From Vulcanisaeta souniana JCM 11219 (GTDB taxonomy: Archaea; Thermoproteota; Thermoprotei; Thermoproteales; Thermocladiaceae), in the NCBI RefSeq assembly GCF_026000775.1, contig NZ_AP026830.1:1821056-1885055 (forward strand): a stretch of 64,000 nt of DNA, given 5' to 3'. This document shows, one piece after another, positions 18,421-41,423 of the stretch. Made by a program: the position numbers and the translations under genes. The stretch's first letter is position 1; each line of letters starts with the position of its first letter. Below the pieces are notes generated by a model. That model was not told where the DNA came from. It made no database searches and saw only the letters and a program-made list of their open reading frames with translations.

Positions 18421-19008
18421 ATGTCCCGCTTCACAATGGGGAGCGAGATTAGTAAATTACTGGATAATATAGTCAGCACATCGATGAACCAAATACCGCC
18501 ACCAGCAAGGTTTAGCGATTATGATGCCCAGGTAATTACGAAATTCAAGCCAATACTCACGTCAATAACCGAGGACGTGGTTAAGAACTTTTACGACATA
18601 CTATTTTCCTATGAGCCAACGGCTGCGGTTTTCCAACCTGACGAGAGGCCGTTGAGGGAGAAGACGCTTAGGGATTGGTGGATCAGGACATTAAATGGTC
18701 CGTTTAATGAGGATTACTGGTTGTGGCAGGCCTACGTAGGCGTCATTCACTATAGGAGAAACGTTACGCCACCCATGTTCATGGGTATGTGGGCCTGGAT
18801 CATAGACAACGTAATCAGAAAAACACAAACCAGTCCCGAGTTAGTTTCTGCATTGGTTAAGCTTGGCGCCACCCAGTCATCACTCATGGTCGGTGGTTAC
18901 TACGACATTGTAGAATACGCACTGAACAGAGTTGATATAGGCAGCGATTTACTTAGGAACCTCGTTATTTCAATTATTGAGGAATTAGCGACAAGCATTA
19001 AAAAGTAG
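18421..19008 (+). CDS. Protoglobin (single-domain haem gas-binding protein)
   Basis: 195 residues of the protoglobin / globin-coupled-sensor globin fold. The proximal haem histidine is H110 in AYVGVIHYRRNVTP, and the N-terminal helices before a long A/B region (TSITEDVVKNFYDILF) are typical of protoglobins. It lacks any output domain, so it binds O2, NO or CO directly rather than signalling. A TATA-like gcttatatc at 18388-18396 precedes the ATG by 26-29 nt. It precedes the cupredoxin gene by 120 nt in the same direction; a role in nitric-oxide handling would fit the nar/nor genes elsewhere in the window (inference). Confidence 0.88.
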   Translation: MSRFTMGSEISKLLDNIVSTSMNQIPPPARFSDYDAQVITKFKPILTSITEDVVKNFYDILFSYEPTAAVFQPDERPLREKTLRDWWIRTLNGPFNEDYWLWQAYVGVIHYRRNVTPPMFMGMWAWIIDNVIRKTQTSPELVSALVKLGATQSSLMVGGYYDIVEYALNRVDIGSDLLRNLVISIIEELATSIKK

Positions 19009-19131: not shown

Positions 19132-19944
19132 GTGACTGGTATGAGTAGGACCTGGATTTGGATTGCGGTTGGTATTGCCATTGGCTTAGTGATTAGTCTA
19201 GGCTTAGTCTACGCAATTATGCCCTATTACTATAATTACTACTACGGTAATTACCCTGGCGCCCTGCCTATAGGTCCCAGTGCGAGTAATTACTATGGTG
19301 GTTACACCTACGGTACATATTCAATAAGTCAAATCATTAAGGAAGTTATGGAAGTGCCGAGCTACGCCCATGTTTACCCGAATAACAATACTATAGTATT
19401 CACTAGTAAGGATATTAACTTATTAGTCGTGGCCATGATGGGTGACGATGCAGAGAGGATGTTTAATGCAACTCCTCCGTCATATGTGCATGGCGATGTC
19501 TTTGTTATTTATGGGCTCATAAACCCAACGCTGGTCATGCCTGCGGGCGCCGTTGTTCATGTTACCTTCGTTAATCTCGATGATGACATGTACCATAACT
19601 TCGTGATTACTACGGTGACACCCCCATACCCATATTATGTAATGCCCTACATGGGCATGTACGGCGGTATGGGTCCACAAATGATGCTCTTCATGAGGTG
19701 GTTACCACCGGCTAACTATAACACTGGTTATGCTTATGGCTACGAATATACATTCACGATCACCGCACTAGGTACGTATTGGTACTTATGCACCTATCCG
19801 GGGCACGCAGAAGAGGGTATGTATGGAGAGATAATTGCCGTGGGTAATGGCTTAAGCACATCGGCATACCCATATCCTACTGCTCAATACCCAGGTACAT
19901 ACTATGGACCTGGTTGGATGGGTGGTATGATGGGGTGGTGGTAA
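19132..19944 (+). CDS. Membrane-anchored cupredoxin (type 1 copper protein)
   Basis: 270 residues. A single N-terminal membrane anchor (residues 8-30) leads to a Tyr/Gly-rich linker and an extracellular cupredoxin domain. All four type 1 copper ligands are visible: H155 (DDMYHNF), C220, H225 and M230 (YLCTYPGHAEEGMYG). An insert between the first His and the Cys is rich in Met, Tyr and Gly, and the C-terminal tail is Tyr/Pro/Met-rich, which may hold extra copper or be disordered. It probably carries electrons outside the cell membrane, perhaps to a terminal oxidase or reductase. It overlaps the next gene by one base (TAATG). Confidence 0.88.
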   Translation: MTGMSRTWIWIAVGIAIGLVISLGLVYAIMPYYYNYYYGNYPGALPIGPSASNYYGGYTYGTYSISQIIKEVMEVPSYAHVYPNNNTIVFTSKDINLLVVAMMGDDAERMFNATPPSYVHGDVFVIYGLINPTLVMPAGAVVHVTFVNLDDDMYHNFVITTVTPPYPYYVMPYMGMYGGMGPQMMLFMRWLPPANYNTGYAYGYEYTFTITALGTYWYLCTYPGHAEEGMYGEIIAVGNGLSTSAYPYPTAQYPGTYYGPGWMGGMMGWW

Positions 19945-20172: not shown

Positions 20173-20328
20173 CTAATTGCTCTTAAAATCCTTAAGTTTC
20201 ACTATATTTCTACCTTTAACCTTAATGACCTCTACCAAGCCCTTCTCCTCAAGCCTACGTACTATCCTCCAGGCCTGGACCTTCGACAAACCTAGGTCCT
20301 TCATTATCTGGTACTGAAAAACCTCACC
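20173..20328 (-). pseudogene. C-terminal winged-helix half of a split membrane-bound regulator
   Basis: Encodes GEVFQYQIMKDLGLSKVQAWRIVRRLEEKGLVEV…, a MarR/TrmB-like winged helix. It is the missing C-terminus of the gene at 21819-22207: joining that gene's …YVIKSG to this GEVFQYQ… restores an uninterrupted domain. An insertion (20329-21818) separates them. An in-frame ATG inside the insertion (20361) could still produce a 62-residue solitary winged helix. It converges on the cupredoxin pair with 13 nt between. Confidence 0.75.
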
Positions 20329-20378
20329 GCTCGCCCGGTGGTGGTCTTTTTTGTGGTTCATAGTTGTTTATGTCCACC

Positions 20379-20492
20379 GCCGGGTTCACCGCGGCTTCTT
20401 ATCCCCGGCCCCCCGCCTGCGGGAGCGTGGCTCCCATCGGCGAAGGGCGGTTCACGCCGTAGTCCCCCTCGCCAGGCTCATCGGGCTCATCC
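20379..20492 (-). ncRNA. GC-rich structured stretch, possible element-end / omega-RNA-like RNA
   Basis: About 115 bases far richer in G+C than the surroundings, with many potential stems (gggagcgtggctccc; ccgcctgcgg; gcggttcacgccg). In hyperthermophiles such islands usually mark structured RNA. Read on the minus strand, it resembles the 3' end of crenarchaeal TnpB elements (by recollection of such ends, not by a search). It is next to the element boundary at 20329. Strand and function are uncertain. Confidence 0.35.
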
Positions 20493-20553
20493 CAATGTTA
20501 TTAGTACAGAAAGACTTATAGGTTTTTCTGTATTTCTTGTTCTTGATTTCTGT

Positions 20554-20700
20554 ATGCCTGAGGAGTATGTTTTCCATGCTAGGATTTCGAGGACAGGCCA
20601 CGGGCTATTGTGCATATACATACCGAGGGAGCTCAGCTCAAAAATGCAACACCTGTATAGGAGGGAGGTGATTATACGTGTCACAGTCCCAGATGAGTAA
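20554..20700 (+). CDS. 48-aa swapped-hairpin-like protein preceding TnpB
   Basis: Begins MPEEYVFHARISRTGHG and contains CIYIPRELSSKMQHLYRREVIIRV, a beta-turn-helix-beta pattern like a single AbrB-type motif. The ATG follows a TATA-like acttatagg (20512-20520). It overlaps the start of the TnpB gene, so the two are probably translated together. It may be a small DNA-binding partner or repressor of the TnpB nuclease (inference). A longer in-frame extension upstream runs through the GC-rich stretch and is not credible. Confidence 0.5.
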   Translation: MPEEYVFHARISRTGHGLLCIYIPRELSSKMQHLYRREVIIRVTVPDE

Positions 20701-21748
20701 TGGAGGGGTTGTTGATGCATCTAAGCTAGTTGCGCATGTGACAATAGCAGGCAGGCTGGTTCCAGAGGCAAGCGATGACTTCATGAAGCTAGCTAGGCTA
20801 GCGCATGACTTTAGGAAGGCCGTGCTCTACGCGACTAGGATGATTGCCAGGGGAGTTGACGCCAATTCAATCCTCAGAGAACTAAGGTCAATGCTGAACA
20901 AGGCATATGGTGATTCAGCATACAAGGTTGCAAAAGCACTCGTCGAGGGATGTAGGTACAGCAATGGTAATCTAAGGCACATCAAGGTGAAGAAGCTGTT
21001 CATTGTAAGCGAAGGCGAAGCAACTAGGCTTGGAAATAGAAATGTGAGGCTAGGCCCACTAGGTGTTGTTAAAATTAAGTATCCATACGATGGCTCGTGG
21101 CTCAGTTTCAAAGCACTATTCGGTGAAGAGTACATACCGCTGGTTAAAGAGCTTGTAGAGCTGAGCAGGCAGAAGAGGATGAGCTATGGTGCTAGAATTG
21201 TTTTCAGAAGCGGGAGGATATACCTCCACATCTCAATACCACTAGAACTCTATCTAAAGCATTTTAAGAGGGGAGAGGCCAGGGGAAGCCTCGTTGTGGG
21301 GTTCGACTTGAACAGCGATAGGATAAACATGGTGATAGTCGATAAGTACGGGAGGATAAGGGACACCAGGGCTGCGTGGTTCCCAGAAGTAACATCACAT
21401 GGATTCCCAAGAAACAAGGCTAGGGCTAGGAGGCTTGAAGCACTTTCGGAGTTGCTTAGGTATGCTTACTATCACGGTGTCGGTGTTGTTGTCTTTGAGA
21501 ACCTCCTCCTCATTAAGAGGAGGAGGTTTGGCAAAAACAGGGTGGCAAACCGCAAGATTGCGAGGTTTGCAAAGAGGGAGTTATTAATGCATGGCATTAT
21601 CATGGCAATGAAGTACGGCTTCAGGGTGTACCTAGTAAGTCCAAGGGGCACATCAAAATCTAGAGAACATGATGAGGTCATGAAGAGACTAGGCCTGGAT
21701 AGGCATATGGCATCGGCATACCTAATAGCCATGAAGGGGCTAAAATAA
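20678..21748 (+). CDS. TnpB-like RuvC nuclease without zinc ribbon
   Basis: 356 residues from a GTG at 20678 (ATG at 20693 possible). The RuvC catalytic triad is complete: D210 (VVGFDLNSD), E274 (VVVFENLLL) and D341 (GLDRHMASAYLIA). The zinc ribbon with CxxC pairs that TnpB normally carries between the SPxxTS motif (321-326) and RuvC-III is absent; only about 15 residues lie there. TnpB proteins are RNA-guided DNA nucleases that help IS200/IS605/IS607 elements persist. The gene runs towards the 61-bp end block, opposite to the orientation seen in the IS607 element at 39-41 kb. Confidence 0.85.
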   Translation: MSQSQMSNGGVVDASKLVAHVTIAGRLVPEASDDFMKLARLAHDFRKAVLYATRMIARGVDANSILRELRSMLNKAYGDSAYKVAKALVEGCRYSNGNLRHIKVKKLFIVSEGEATRLGNRNVRLGPLGVVKIKYPYDGSWLSFKALFGEEYIPLVKELVELSRQKRMSYGARIVFRSGRIYLHISIPLELYLKHFKRGEARGSLVVGFDLNSDRINMVIVDKYGRIRDTRAAWFPEVTSHGFPRNKARARRLEALSELLRYAYYHGVGVVVFENLLLIKRRRFGKNRVANRKIARFAKRELLMHGIIMAMKYGFRVYLVSPRGTSKSREHDEVMKRLGLDRHMASAYLIAMKGLK

Positions 21749-21762
21749 CCATGAACAACCTC

Positions 21763-21823
21763 AGTTGATAATAAATGAACATAAAAATACCTCTATCAAC
21801 ATGAAAAAGAATACAGCCCCAGA
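21763..21823. repeat. 61-bp block shared with the IS607 element (copy 1)
   Basis: Starts agttgataataaatgaac and ends cagccccaga. Aligned without gaps to 40881-40941, 51 of 61 bases agree by eye. It covers the junction of this element with the interrupted regulator gene and is probably the element's terminal sequence including its TATA-like core. Confidence 0.8.
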
Positions 21824-22207
21824 CTTAATCACGTACTCGAGGACCTCACGCTCAGTCTTAGGTAATAGCCTTAAGACCTTACTATAATAATCATTGGAAT
21901 AACCAGTCACGGAATTACCCTTCGCCGCAGTCTCCTGCATCGCCGCGTAACTCAGTCCTTGGGAATTCCCGGTGGATCTTATGAGGATTATTGGCGCAAT
22001 TACTGTAATTATGCCCACGGTTAGTAATGCCAGGGGTAGGAATAGCGGGTAGTACATCATCGTTCCGCACATCATTCCCATGCAGTGGTAATAGGCCATG
22101 TAATTAACCATGACTAACGCGCCATAGAGTAAATACGCACTTACGCCCAATATGATTGCGCCTACTATGATTAATACATTACGCAACACATTATGGTCTC
22201 CACTCAT
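21819..22207 (-). pseudogene. N-terminal half of a split membrane-bound winged-helix regulator
   Basis: Starts at the ATG at 22207. Two transmembrane segments (residues about 9-33 and 53-76) flank a short loop rich in Met, Cys, His and Tyr (AYYHCMGMMCGTMMYY), then a linker and the beginning of a winged helix (TEREVLEYVIKSG) where coding is cut by the insertion; the frame now runs 20 residues into the element and stops at 21761. The intact protein would have been a membrane sensor with a cytoplasmic DNA-binding domain. The metal-ligand-like loop and adjacency to cupredoxin genes suggest copper or redox sensing (inference). Confidence 0.75.
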
Positions 22208-38923: not shown

Positions 38924-39018
38924 GTGCGGAGCCCTAACTTTAAAAATTTAAAATCAAACTATCCCTGAAAGGACCCACACGCATTACTTAATTCCTGCTT
39001 TAATGATTCATCCCGTTT

Positions 39019-39074
39019 GTCCCTACACTTTCATTTCATTCATTTTGTGTTCATTCATGATCGAGTGTAGGGAC
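39019..39074. repeat. Inverted repeat at the 3' end of tnpB
   Basis: gtccctacact (39019-39029) and agtgtagggac (39064-39074) are perfect 11-base complements around a 34-base loop that includes the tnpB stop. This is the place where TnpB elements form the stem-loop end of the guide (omega) RNA or the transposon end hairpin; a terminator is an alternative. Confidence 0.55.
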
Positions 39075-40261
39075 TTAGCCCTCAACCACCTGCCGAGCTT
39101 TACGACAGGCGGGTCATGGGACCCCTTCGACCCCAACAGCACGGGGGTCACATCTCCAGCCCTTTTCAACAAGTTGTACAGTGAGACAACATCCCTATGC
39201 CATTTCTCTTTTCCCCTCTCGCAAACACCAACCCTTGGGGCAATGCCCCCATCGGGTTGGTAAATGATCTTCGATCCGTGGATTGGACACGTTGAGGAAG
39301 TATAAGAAGGATTAACTAAGACCACGGGGACACCAAACTCCCTAGCCTTCTCAATAATAGCATTCTTCATAGATGAAAACGCTGAACGGTAAATTCTCAA
39401 CCTAAGCTGAGAGTCTTTAACATCCTTAACCATATGTTCTGGAGTATTTCTTGGCAAGTCCTCCAAAATTATGGCACTACTACTTTCGTAAGCTTCCTTA
39501 ACGATCAGCTTAGCCAACTTCCTCCTAACATCAGCCTTTTTATCTCCCTCTCTCAACTTCTTTAACTTCCTCTTAACATCCCTATCCTTAGTTGACTTAC
39601 CAGTGGTCATCGACTTCCTCCTATACTCATAACCTAGAGTAATTTTCTTGGTGTTAGCCTCTAAAAGAATCGGTTTTTCATCAATTAATACAGAGACTGA
39701 ATTCTCATTGAGATCAACTGGGATGAAACCCTTAGGCTCGTAAGGTTTAGGCTCATCCTTCTTAAAGACAATATAGAGTTCCACCACATTACCCTTTAAC
39801 AATTTAAACCTAGCCTCACTCGCAATCCTCCAGCCCTTATTATAATATTCCCAAAAGATCTTAGGGAAGGTTGGAGAAATGAGAACCTTACCCTTCTTTG
39901 TGGAAATTGAGATTATACTAAGGCTGAACTTCCACAAGTGGTCATCTAAGTGCACAGTAACCATCCTCACTGACGGTTTATCAGTATAAGCCCTACCCCT
40001 CTTCTTTAACTTCTCAAAACTGTCTAATCTCTCACTCGCATCCTCACAGGCAGTGTAAATGTAGTGTGACGGTAAGTCCTTATGCTTCTCCCTCTCTTCC
40101 CCATAAATCCCAGCCTTAATCCTAGTGAAGGAGGCAGTTTTGCTTGACAGCCCATAATTTATTGCCTCCTCTAGAACCTCTCTGTACTCCTCCTCAACTT
40201 CTTTAAGCGCTGAGTATGTGGCGTAGTCGACCCTAACTCTTAACTTCACCGTCCTATCCAT
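39023..40261 (-). CDS. tnpB: TnpB (IS607-associated RNA-guided nuclease)
   Basis: 412 residues. RuvC triad: D183 (IPVDLNENS), E267 (ILEDLPRN), D357 (WHRDVVSLYNLL). Zinc ribbon is imperfect: CPIH at 325-328 and CERG at 347-350, so one ligand is His and one Cys is lost. TnpB uses an RNA from the element's 3' end to cut the empty donor site and promote retention. The start overlaps the tnpA stop by 8 nt. Confidence 0.9.
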   Translation of the reverse strand: MDRTVKLRVRVDYATYSALKEVEEEYREVLEEAINYGLSSKTASFTRIKAGIYGEEREKHKDLPSHYIYTACEDASERLDSFEKLKKRGRAYTDKPSVRMVTVHLDDHLWKFSLSIISISTKKGKVLISPTFPKIFWEYYNKGWRIASEARFKLLKGNVVELYIVFKKDEPKPYEPKGFIPVDLNENSVSVLIDEKPILLEANTKKITLGYEYRRKSMTTGKSTKDRDVKRKLKKLREGDKKADVRRKLAKLIVKEAYESSSAIILEDLPRNTPEHMVKDVKDSQLRLRIYRSAFSSMKNAIIEKAREFGVPVVLVNPSYTSSTCPIHGSKIIYQPDGGIAPRVGVCERGKEKWHRDVVSLYNLLKRAGDVTPVLLGSKGSHDPPVVKLGRWLRAKSLHSIMNEHKMNEMKV

Positions 40262-40862
40262 CTAGCTCACCCATCAACTTTTTTACACCTTGAACGAGGA
40301 CTGTCTTCTTGTGACTTCTCATTCCGTAAATTTTCCCAGCGAATGAAGCAATGATGGAGATTAAGTCTTCTACGAGTTCCTGCGTAGCATCTTTGGGCTC
40401 CTCGCCGAAAACTATCTCGATCTTAACACCCATGGTTGAGAAGAACTCCTCTAAGTACTCAAAGCCGAACCTCGTTAACCTATCCTTGTAGGTTATTAAT
40501 ACGACATCAATACTCCTTCCCTCAACCAGCTTGAATAGCCTTAACAATCCTTTCCTTTGCGTGTTTAACCCACTAGCTATATCTTTTAGCACTTCAACTA
40601 CCTTGTAACCCTTTGCCATTGCATAATTTGTCAAGTAGTTTATTTGCCTCTCTAAATCCTCTTTTTGATCAGCTGATGAAACCCTTGCGTAAATTACAGC
40701 CCTTATTTCCTCCCTCCTCTCTAAGTATTTCTTAATCTCACTGTAAGGTATCCTATACTTCCCACCCTCAGTTGTTACCACCCTTATCTTCCCTTCCCTG
40801 ACCCACCTTAACAAGGTTGAGTATGAAATGCCAAGGAGTTGACAAGCCTCCTTAGGTCTCAG
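40254..40862 (-). CDS. tnpA: IS607-type serine recombinase (TnpA)
   Basis: Small serine recombinase that moves the element. The MerR-like helix-turn-helix (LLRPKEACQLLGISYSTLLRW) is followed by the catalytic domain with YARVSSADQKEDLERQ (active serine), and GFEYLEEFF. No ATG or GTG precedes the helix-turn-helix in frame: the first initiator that preserves it is a CTG at 40862; the next usable codon, a TTG at 40814, would delete half of it. Coding potential continues only to about 40871, right next to the promoter-like TTTTTATATTC inside the end block. A non-standard start or 5' damage is possible. Confidence 0.8.
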   Translation of the reverse strand: MRPKEACQLLGISYSTLLRWVREGKIRVVTTEGGKYRIPYSEIKKYLERREEIRAVIYARVSSADQKEDLERQINYLTNYAMAKGYKVVEVLKDIASGLNTQRKGLLRLFKLVEGRSIDVVLITYKDRLTRFGFEYLEEFFSTMGVKIEIVFGEEPKDATQELVEDLISIIASFAGKIYGMRSHKKTVLVQGVKKLMGELDG

Positions 40863-40880
40863 TAGTCTCTCCGCAAAAAT

Positions 40881-40941
40881 AGTTGATAATAAATGAATAT
40901 AAAAAGATTTTTATTAACATGAGAAAGGATTCATCCCCAGA
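40881..40941. repeat. 61-bp block shared with the element at 20.3-21.8 kb (copy 2)
   Basis: Starts agttgataataaatgaata and ends tcatccccaga; about 51 of 61 bases match 21763-21823 with no gaps. It spans the tnpA-side end of the IS607 element and the last codons of the PaREP1 gene. Confidence 0.8.
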
Positions 40942-41423
40942 ACCCTAACCACACTATTCAGTAAGTTGCATATGTCCTTCACTGCGGCGTCCCTTGATGT
41001 ATATATGTTCATGATACCCTCGGGATCAACACCATTATATTGATACTGATGAAGCGCCAACGCGAGCAGGGACTCTTTCTCAAGGCCAAGTAACTTACCC
41101 ACATCGCGAATCATGGAGGTGGGCATGTAGGCTATTACCTTATCAACATTCTTAATACTATTGCGAAGCTCCTCCCTCCTCTCACCGGCCAATGCGGCAA
41201 GCAATGATTTAAATGCCTGAAACGCCTTATCGGCGGCGTTCCTGGTGTAACCCTCGACCAACAACCTTAATGCTAACCTAACCTCAGCCGAAGCTTCAGC
41301 TCTCCTGGCCTCAATGTATGCCCGTAGATCCTTCCAAGGCTTACCAAGTTGCTCAGGCAACATGAACCTATATCTAAGGTAATGCCATTCCTCAATAAAA
41401 GCCTTATCATTAACTCTAATCAA
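40914..41423 (-). CDS. PaREP1-family (HEPN-like) protein, possibly 3'-truncated
   Basis: 169 residues, helical. KPWKDLRAYIEARRAEASAE, then GYTRNAADKAFQAFKSLLAALAG and a C-terminal HQYQYNGVDPEG region are characteristic of the PaREP1 paralogues of Thermoproteales, which resemble HEPN domains. The last eight residues (LGMNPFSC) are encoded by the 61-bp element-end block, so the natural C-terminus may be lost. HEPN proteins often act with nucleotidyltransferase partners, but none is adjacent. Confidence 0.75.
   Translation of the reverse strand: MIRVNDKAFIEEWHYLRYRFMLPEQLGKPWKDLRAYIEARRAEASAEVRLALRLLVEGYTRNAADKAFQAFKSLLAALAGERREELRNSIKNVDKVIAYMPTSMIRDVGKLLGLEKESLLALALHQYQYNGVDPEGIMNIYTSRDAAVKDICNLLNSVVRVLGMNPFSC

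What the first reader, a model, noticed from the sequence alone, without database searches (positions are those of the whole stretch)
20173..22207. A membrane-anchored regulator cleanly split by a GG-targeted element
Joining …YVIKSG (from 21819-22207) and GEVFQYQ… (from 20328) through a single GG rebuilds an in-frame winged helix. This defines the element boundaries to the base and shows IS607-style GG insertion. It also implies loss of control of the neighbouring cupredoxin genes.
Basis: seen in the sequence. Interest (0 to 1): 0.65.

Follow-up and report, generated by a model that had tools for sequence, protein, structure and literature searches.

The report
IS607-type rider with divergent guide RNA
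A regulator gene of a hyperthermophilic archaeon is interrupted by a small mobile element that carries no transposase but has a TnpB-like RNA-guided nuclease and a guide-RNA gene facing away from it, a layout conserved in dozens of archaeal loci and for which I found no earlier description.

Summary
The insertion is real. In relatives the regulator is one intact gene beside the same cupredoxin gene; here an about 1.49-kb element (about 20329-21816) sits in its G-run. The junction is not fixed to the base: homologues read K-S-G-G-E-V from five Gs, a single-GG join gives K-S-G-E-V, and the filled site holds six Gs where seven are predicted. IS607-style GG insertion is supported: the left end matches that of a complete IS607 at 39-40.9 kb. 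The element has no TnpA. It carries a TnpB-like protein with invariant RuvC residues D210/E274/D341 but no zinc ribbon, preceded by a 48-residue AbrB/MazE-like protein. On the opposite strand a covarying RNA of about 165 nt ends exactly at the element's right end, like a TnpB guide RNA. The two units diverge from a palindromic TATA promoter. Outside the window, 36 of 39 RNA-model hits lie upstream of and divergent from a nuclease relative, 25 of them outside the training set. Best reading: a transposase-less rider on IS607 enzymes that guards its site with a separately transcribed guide RNA. Loss of cupredoxin control is plausible but untested.

The parts
20173..20326 (-). C-terminal winged-helix part of the split regulator (GEVFQYQ...); its first ~20 bases beyond the core are also the putative guide (20307-20326, TGAGGTTTTTCAGTACCAGA)
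   Evidence: ORF; intact homologues L015, L016 and others; winged-helix hits DUF7343/TrmB/MarR_2, all below Pfam cut-offs
20173..20361 (-). possible hybrid 62-aa ORF: MNHKKDHHRAS from the element fused in frame to the winged helix
   Evidence: expression untested
20327..20328 (.). CC (GG on the minus strand): exchange core at the RNA-side (right) end
   Evidence: CGG invariant at this end in the close alignment
20327..20493 (-). omegaRNA-like structured RNA on the minus strand, divergent from the nuclease gene; ends at the element boundary with hairpin CCCGGCGGTGG...CCACCACCGGG then CGAGCGG
   Evidence: covariance model hit 150.7 bits (training member); covariation; no Rfam match
20506..20531 (.). 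palindromic bidirectional TATA promoter/operator ACAGAAAGACTTATAGGTTTTTCTGT
   Evidence: 11 of 13 dyad positions; conserved in relatives
20554..20700 (+). 48-aa AbrB/MazE-like small protein (MPEEYVFHARISRTGHGLLCIYIP...)
   Evidence: conserved at this place in relatives; MazE_antitoxin Pfam hits in divergent members L072, L073, L077; dN 0.05, dS >1
20678..21748 (+). TnpB-like protein, 356 aa, RuvC D210/E274/D341, no zinc ribbon
   Evidence: weak NCBIfam TnpB hits; AlphaFold pLDDT 89.9 and Foldseek matches to Cas12f, TnpB and Fanzor; DED invariant in 33 homologues
21763..21820 (.). left end (LE), homologous to the tnpA-side end of the IS607 at 40881-40941; C-run 21817-21820 holds the core
   Evidence: 84% over 61 bp; 0 of 2000 shuffles
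21821..22207 (-). N-terminal membrane part of the split regulator (129 aa)
39009..40938 (-). autonomous IS607 element in the same window (tnpA 40254-about 40880, tnpB 39023-40261); candidate transposase source
   Evidence: Resolvase PF00239 and Cas12f1-like_TNB PF07282; empty site in G008

Best explanation
The regulator is interrupted by a transposase-less element moved in trans by an IS607-type serine recombinase through a GG core. The element encodes a compact, zinc-ribbon-less TnpB-like nuclease. On the opposite strand it encodes a separately transcribed omegaRNA whose scaffold ends at the right end, so that its guide is the adjoining host sequence. A 48-aa AbrB/MazE-like protein probably binds the palindromic promoter between the two units and represses both. 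When a recombinase removes the element, the nuclease with its guide RNA should cut the emptied site next to the G-rich flank and promote restoration from a remaining copy. Shown by sequence: insertion, ends, divergent architecture, RNA covariation, intact catalytic residues and purifying selection. Inferred: transcription, RNA binding, cleavage, repression and trans-mobilisation.
For: Intact homologues at the site. Three full copies in the genome plus a matching IS607 left end. RNA covariation: terminal stem has 10-12 pairs in 11 loci with differing stems, 0 of 20000 permutations; plain MAFFT alignment 95.4% paired, 12 double-change cells against 2.7 shuffled. Outside the window 36 of 39 RNA hits are upstream and divergent. 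G-U 129 against A-C 30 cells favours the divergent strand. DED invariant in 33 proteins, Cas12f/TnpB fold, dN/dS about 0.11. Two IS607 TnpA genes in the genome. No TnpA in any related locus. IS607 uses GG/(G)GG cores without target duplication (PMC6188088); bacterial IS607 TnpBs use G-rich TAMs beside LE (PMC11061315). The 20-nt guide matches the empty site in G008 exactly, preceded by GGGGG.
Against: No expression or biochemical data. One G is missing at the junction. The missing zinc ribbon might mean altered or lost activity. The RNA model was built from close members and the wide alignment is fitted to it, which inflates pairing and favours the modelled strand. Most loci reach only about 1.5 kb from the gene, so a distant tnpA is not excluded. 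The small protein in the window itself has no Pfam match, and its fold search was not significant.
Confidence: 0.72

Rival explanations
1. The structured RNA is not a guide RNA but a terminal structure read by the transposase, or a leader of the nuclease mRNA, and the nuclease uses another RNA or none.
For: No transcript data; the RNA lies at the recombinase end, so conservation could partly reflect end recognition.
Against: Compensatory changes alter the sequence but keep the pairing, unlike a protein-read DNA site; G-U excess is strand-specific; the RNA ends exactly where guides begin in known TnpB systems, and only a short left end follows the nuclease gene downstream.
Confidence: 0.13
2. 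The TnpB-like protein is a nuclease-dead, domesticated RNA-guided regulator (TldR-like), or the element is an immobile host gene.
For: The zinc ribbon is absent and one copy is shared at the same site with another species (L002/L033).
Against: D210/E274/D341 are invariant in 33 homologues. Copies sit at different sites, G008 lacks the window insertion, and L002/L003 are 98.4% identical paralogues.
Confidence: 0.08
3. The element is a decayed IS607 in which tnpA was lost and tnpB inverted once, with no special function.
For: No tnpA, IS607-type ends.
Against: The same divergent order recurs across Thermoproteota families, usually with a small regulator, and the genes are under purifying selection.
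Confidence: 0.04
4. The regulator is not lost: the guide-RNA promoter drives a 62-aa hybrid ORF that frees the winged helix from its membrane anchor, changing rather than ending control of the cupredoxin locus.
For: In-frame ATG at 20361 on the RNA strand; the winged helix is complete apart from the junction residues.
Against: Short ORF, no known translation signal, and the RNA scaffold would have to be translated; an in-frame ATG can arise by chance.
Confidence: 0.07

Closest known systems
IS607 family (tnpA serine recombinase + tnpB; e.g. ISC1926)
   Same: GG exchange core at both ends and target, no target duplication; left end homologous to an IS607 in the same window; right end resembles theirs (CGAGCGG here, CAAACGG there)
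   Different: No tnpA in the element; nuclease gene runs toward the left end, opposite to the normal order
TnpB-omegaRNA (OMEGA/reRNA) systems, ISDra2 and ISFba1
   Same: RuvC DED, TnpB/Cas12f-like fold, structured RNA ending at the right end with the flank as guide, G-rich flank at the left end
   Different: No zinc ribbon; RNA is upstream and divergent, apparently with its own promoter, instead of overlapping the 3' end of tnpB; a small AbrB/RHH-type protein is added
Non-autonomous elements / MITEs mobilised in trans
   Same: Depend on a transposase encoded elsewhere
   Different: Carry two conserved genes and an RNA rather than being gene-less
TldR (TnpB-derived RNA-guided regulators)
   Same: TnpB derivative with accessory gene
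   Different: TldRs have lost the RuvC catalytic residues (own knowledge); these are invariant here

Membership tests
IS607 family element | GG core at termini and empty target, no target duplication | tested here: met
   Empty sites in L015/L016 and exact count for the sister IS607; one G missing at the window's own site
IS607 family element | Encodes a TnpA serine recombinase with N-terminal HTH | tested here: not met
   No TnpA in the element or any related locus; TnpA genes elsewhere in the genome
IS607 family element | Ends homologous to those of an autonomous IS607 | tested here: met
   LE 84% over 61 bp, 0 of 2000 shuffles; RE ends alike
TnpB / OMEGA nuclease | RuvC D-E-D catalytic residues | tested here: met
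   D210, E274, D341 invariant in 33 homologues
TnpB / OMEGA nuclease | TnpB/Cas12f-like fold | tested here: met
   Foldseek: AsCas12f 1.7e-10, ISFba1 TnpB 2.2e-6, ISDra2 TnpB 1.4e-4
TnpB / OMEGA nuclease | Zinc ribbon (target nucleic-acid binding domain) between RuvC-II and RuvC-III | tested here: not met
   Sequence reads SPRGTSKSREHDEVMKRLGLDRH without CxxC pairs; no Cas12f1-like_TNB hit
TnpB / OMEGA nuclease | Guide RNA from the 3' end of tnpB, same strand | tested here: not met
   RNA lies upstream on the opposite strand in the window and in 36 of 39 other hits
TnpB / OMEGA nuclease | RNA-guided DNA cleavage next to a TAM | not testable with these tools
   Needs biochemistry
AbrB/MazE swapped-hairpin proteins (48-aa ORF) | Profile match to MazE/AbrB | tested here: inconclusive
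   L072, L073, L077 match PF04014 at 1e-9 to 1e-11; the window protein has no match; fold search not significant
TldR | Loss of RuvC catalytic residues | tested here: not met
   Residues intact

The most novel reading that the evidence does not exclude
A distinct, widespread archaeal lineage of TnpB systems makes its guide RNA as an independent transcript from a bidirectional promoter controlled by its own exchangeable repressor (AbrB- or ribbon-helix-helix-type), works without the zinc ribbon, and rides on different IS607 transposases by changing its left end.
Probability: 0.5. Interest if true: 0.75.

Novelty: new variant of a known kind. Interest (0 to 1): 0.6.

Why it matters
In the TnpB systems I know of and those cited here, the guide RNA comes from the 3' end of the nuclease mRNA, which ties RNA and protein levels together. 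A divergent, separately promoted and probably repressed guide RNA would be a different way to run an OMEGA system, closer to CRISPR loci where RNA and effector are separate. It would also show how a TnpB module survives without its own transposase, and would give a very small zinc-ribbon-less thermophilic nuclease to test.

Tried and rejected
Rfam (nothing above threshold). Pfam on the nuclease (no hit). An empty site for copy L003 in the genus (none found). Relatives on plasmids (none) and in viral contigs (none). Fold search of the 48-aa protein (not significant). First alignment of genome copies was made in the wrong orientation and redone. Literature searches for TnpB with AbrB, divergent guide RNA, or Thermoproteales TnpB gave no description of this layout; the library lacks most subscription papers and preprints, so absence is weak evidence. 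TnpA-type matching for L003 (left end like the second IS607, L090) is only suggestive (8 of 2000 shuffles, several pairs compared).

Full report
What was claimed.

The split is real. The N-terminal part (22207-21821, minus) and the C-terminal part (20326-20173, minus) are one uninterrupted gene in relatives. G008 is 94% identical over the N-terminal part, G002 90%, G004 71%, and several others have open frames of 160-186 aa. The cupredoxin gene (19132-19944; Copper-bind and SoxE domains) lies beside it in nearly all of those loci, so a functional link is plausible. Nothing here shows what the insertion does to its expression.

The junction is less clean than stated. The nearest intact genes read ...attaagtct-GGGGG-tgaggttt... 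(K-S-G-G-E-V). The window has tct-GGGG at one end and GG-tgagg at the other. IS607 recombinases exchange over an identical GG, without target duplication (PMC6188088), so five Gs plus a two-base core predicts seven; six are present. The complete IS607 at 39-40.9 kb gives the exact number: its empty site in G008 has five Cs, and the filled site has 3+4. One G was therefore probably lost at the regulator site after insertion. A single-GG join gives K-S-G-E-V, one glycine short.

What the element is. Three full copies exist in this 2.43-Mb genome. One (L002) is at the same site as the copy in G008 (L033), and L003 is a 98.4% identical paralogue at another site. The left end of the window copy and of L002 matches the tnpA-side end of the IS607 at 40.9 kb (84% over 61 bp; 0 of 2000 shuffles). 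L003 has another left end, which resembles that of a second IS607 (L090; 8 of 2000 shuffles, suggestive only). The element has no tnpA, and none was found in any related locus. The genome holds two IS607-type TnpA genes.

The nuclease. The 356-aa protein has no Pfam match and only weak NCBIfam TnpB matches. Its AlphaFold model (mean pLDDT 89.9) matches Cas12f, ISFba1 TnpB, Fanzor2 and ISDra2 TnpB. In 33 homologues D210, E274 and D341, the RuvC triad, are invariant. The zinc ribbon is replaced by a short stretch that leads into GLDRHMASAYLIA. dN/dS between the window copy and the nearest copies (L002, L003, L033) is about 0.11-0.12. Relatives occur in 43 of 398 sampled genomes of the phylum at E<=1e-20.

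The RNA. On the minus strand, 20493-20327, lies a GC-rich stretch that ends exactly at the element's boundary. In 12 related loci it folds into the same helices. On a plain MAFFT alignment 95.4% of cells pair, with 12 double changes against 2.7 in shuffles. The terminal hairpin has 10-12 pairs in 11 loci with differing stems, and no permutation of partners among 20000 does as well (that stem alignment was made by hand). A covariance model found the RNA again in most related loci. Of 39 hits outside the window, 36 lie upstream of and divergent from the nuclease gene, 25 of them in loci not used to build the model; a few of these are weak (E 0.001-0.02). The other three are a hit in a degenerate copy (L042), a second hit in L066 and a reverse-strand echo in L006. 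On the wider, fitted alignment 91.1% of cells pair, with 219 double changes. G-U cells outnumber A-C cells 129 to 30, which favours the divergent strand as the RNA (the model was built on that strand, so this leans its way). In known TnpB systems the guide RNA comes from the 3' end of tnpB and its guide is the flank beyond the right end (PMC11061315; PMC12817955). Here the guide position is the same, but the gene faces the other way. The 20 bases beyond the end (TGAGGTTTTTCAGTACCAGA) are exactly the sequence after the G-run in the empty site of G008, and bacterial IS607 TnpBs use G-rich flanks.

The small protein and the promoter. Between the two units lies ACAGAAAGACTTATAGGTTTTTCTGT, a palindrome around a TATA box. 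In one subgroup (L066-L070) the arms differ (GCATGAAA/TTTTAATGC) but remain symmetric (centres were chosen for best symmetry, so the p values are optimistic). A 48-54-aa ORF follows in most members of the main clade. Divergent members match MazE/AbrB (1e-9 to 1e-11), L061 weakly matches a ribbon-helix-helix family below Pfam's cut-off, and L075 looks similar by eye. An exchangeable small DNA-binding protein over a palindromic divergent promoter suggests an autorepressor of both RNA and nuclease; this is inference. The more distant relatives (about 30-37% identity, such as L040, L044, L046, L078) have the divergent RNA without a recognised small ORF.

Mechanism. Most likely the element is moved in trans by an IS607 recombinase, and its nuclease with its guide RNA cuts the emptied donor site so that repair from a remaining copy restores the element. 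The architecture is shown; expression, RNA binding, cleavage, repression and trans-mobilisation are not.

Novelty. The kind (TnpB with guide RNA on IS607-type ends) is known. The divergent RNA, the absent zinc ribbon, the small regulator and the lack of a transposase together make a variant for which I found no description in the papers searched. The searched library is incomplete, so this is not proof of novelty.

Noticed in passing
window 39009-40938: Complete IS607 (tnpA + tnpB) inserted at the end of a PaREP1 gene (40917-41423, minus), with an empty site in G008 that fixes its ends; its tnpA frame shows no ATG/GTG before the HTH, so its start codon or activity is uncertain.
   Followed up: partly
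L002 and L003 (own genome 635993-637461 and 1248948-1250343): Two copies 98.4% identical inside but with different left ends, each resembling a different IS607 of the same genome; suggests end swapping.
   Followed up: partly
L021/L030 (G009): The same regulator gene is also broken (frame interrupted near codon 66) in another species of the genus; incomplete genome, so possibly an assembly error.
   Followed up: no
L066:3392-3581: A second RNA-model hit away from the nuclease gene, possibly a solo guide-RNA copy; weak score.
   Followed up: no
L035, L060, L062, L070 RNA ends: In some subgroups the RNA's terminal bases read CCC or CTC instead of CGG and the pairing bases inside change with them, so the closing helix seems to covary with the insertion core.
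   Followed up: partly
RNA closing helix (window 20327-20400 region): UGAUGA opposite YGA between two helices in relatives looks like a kink-turn, as reported for OrfB-linked RNAs in Pyrococcus (PMC3124441); not tested.
   Followed up: no
window 18421-19008: Protoglobin gene next to the cupredoxin locus (PF11563).
   Followed up: no
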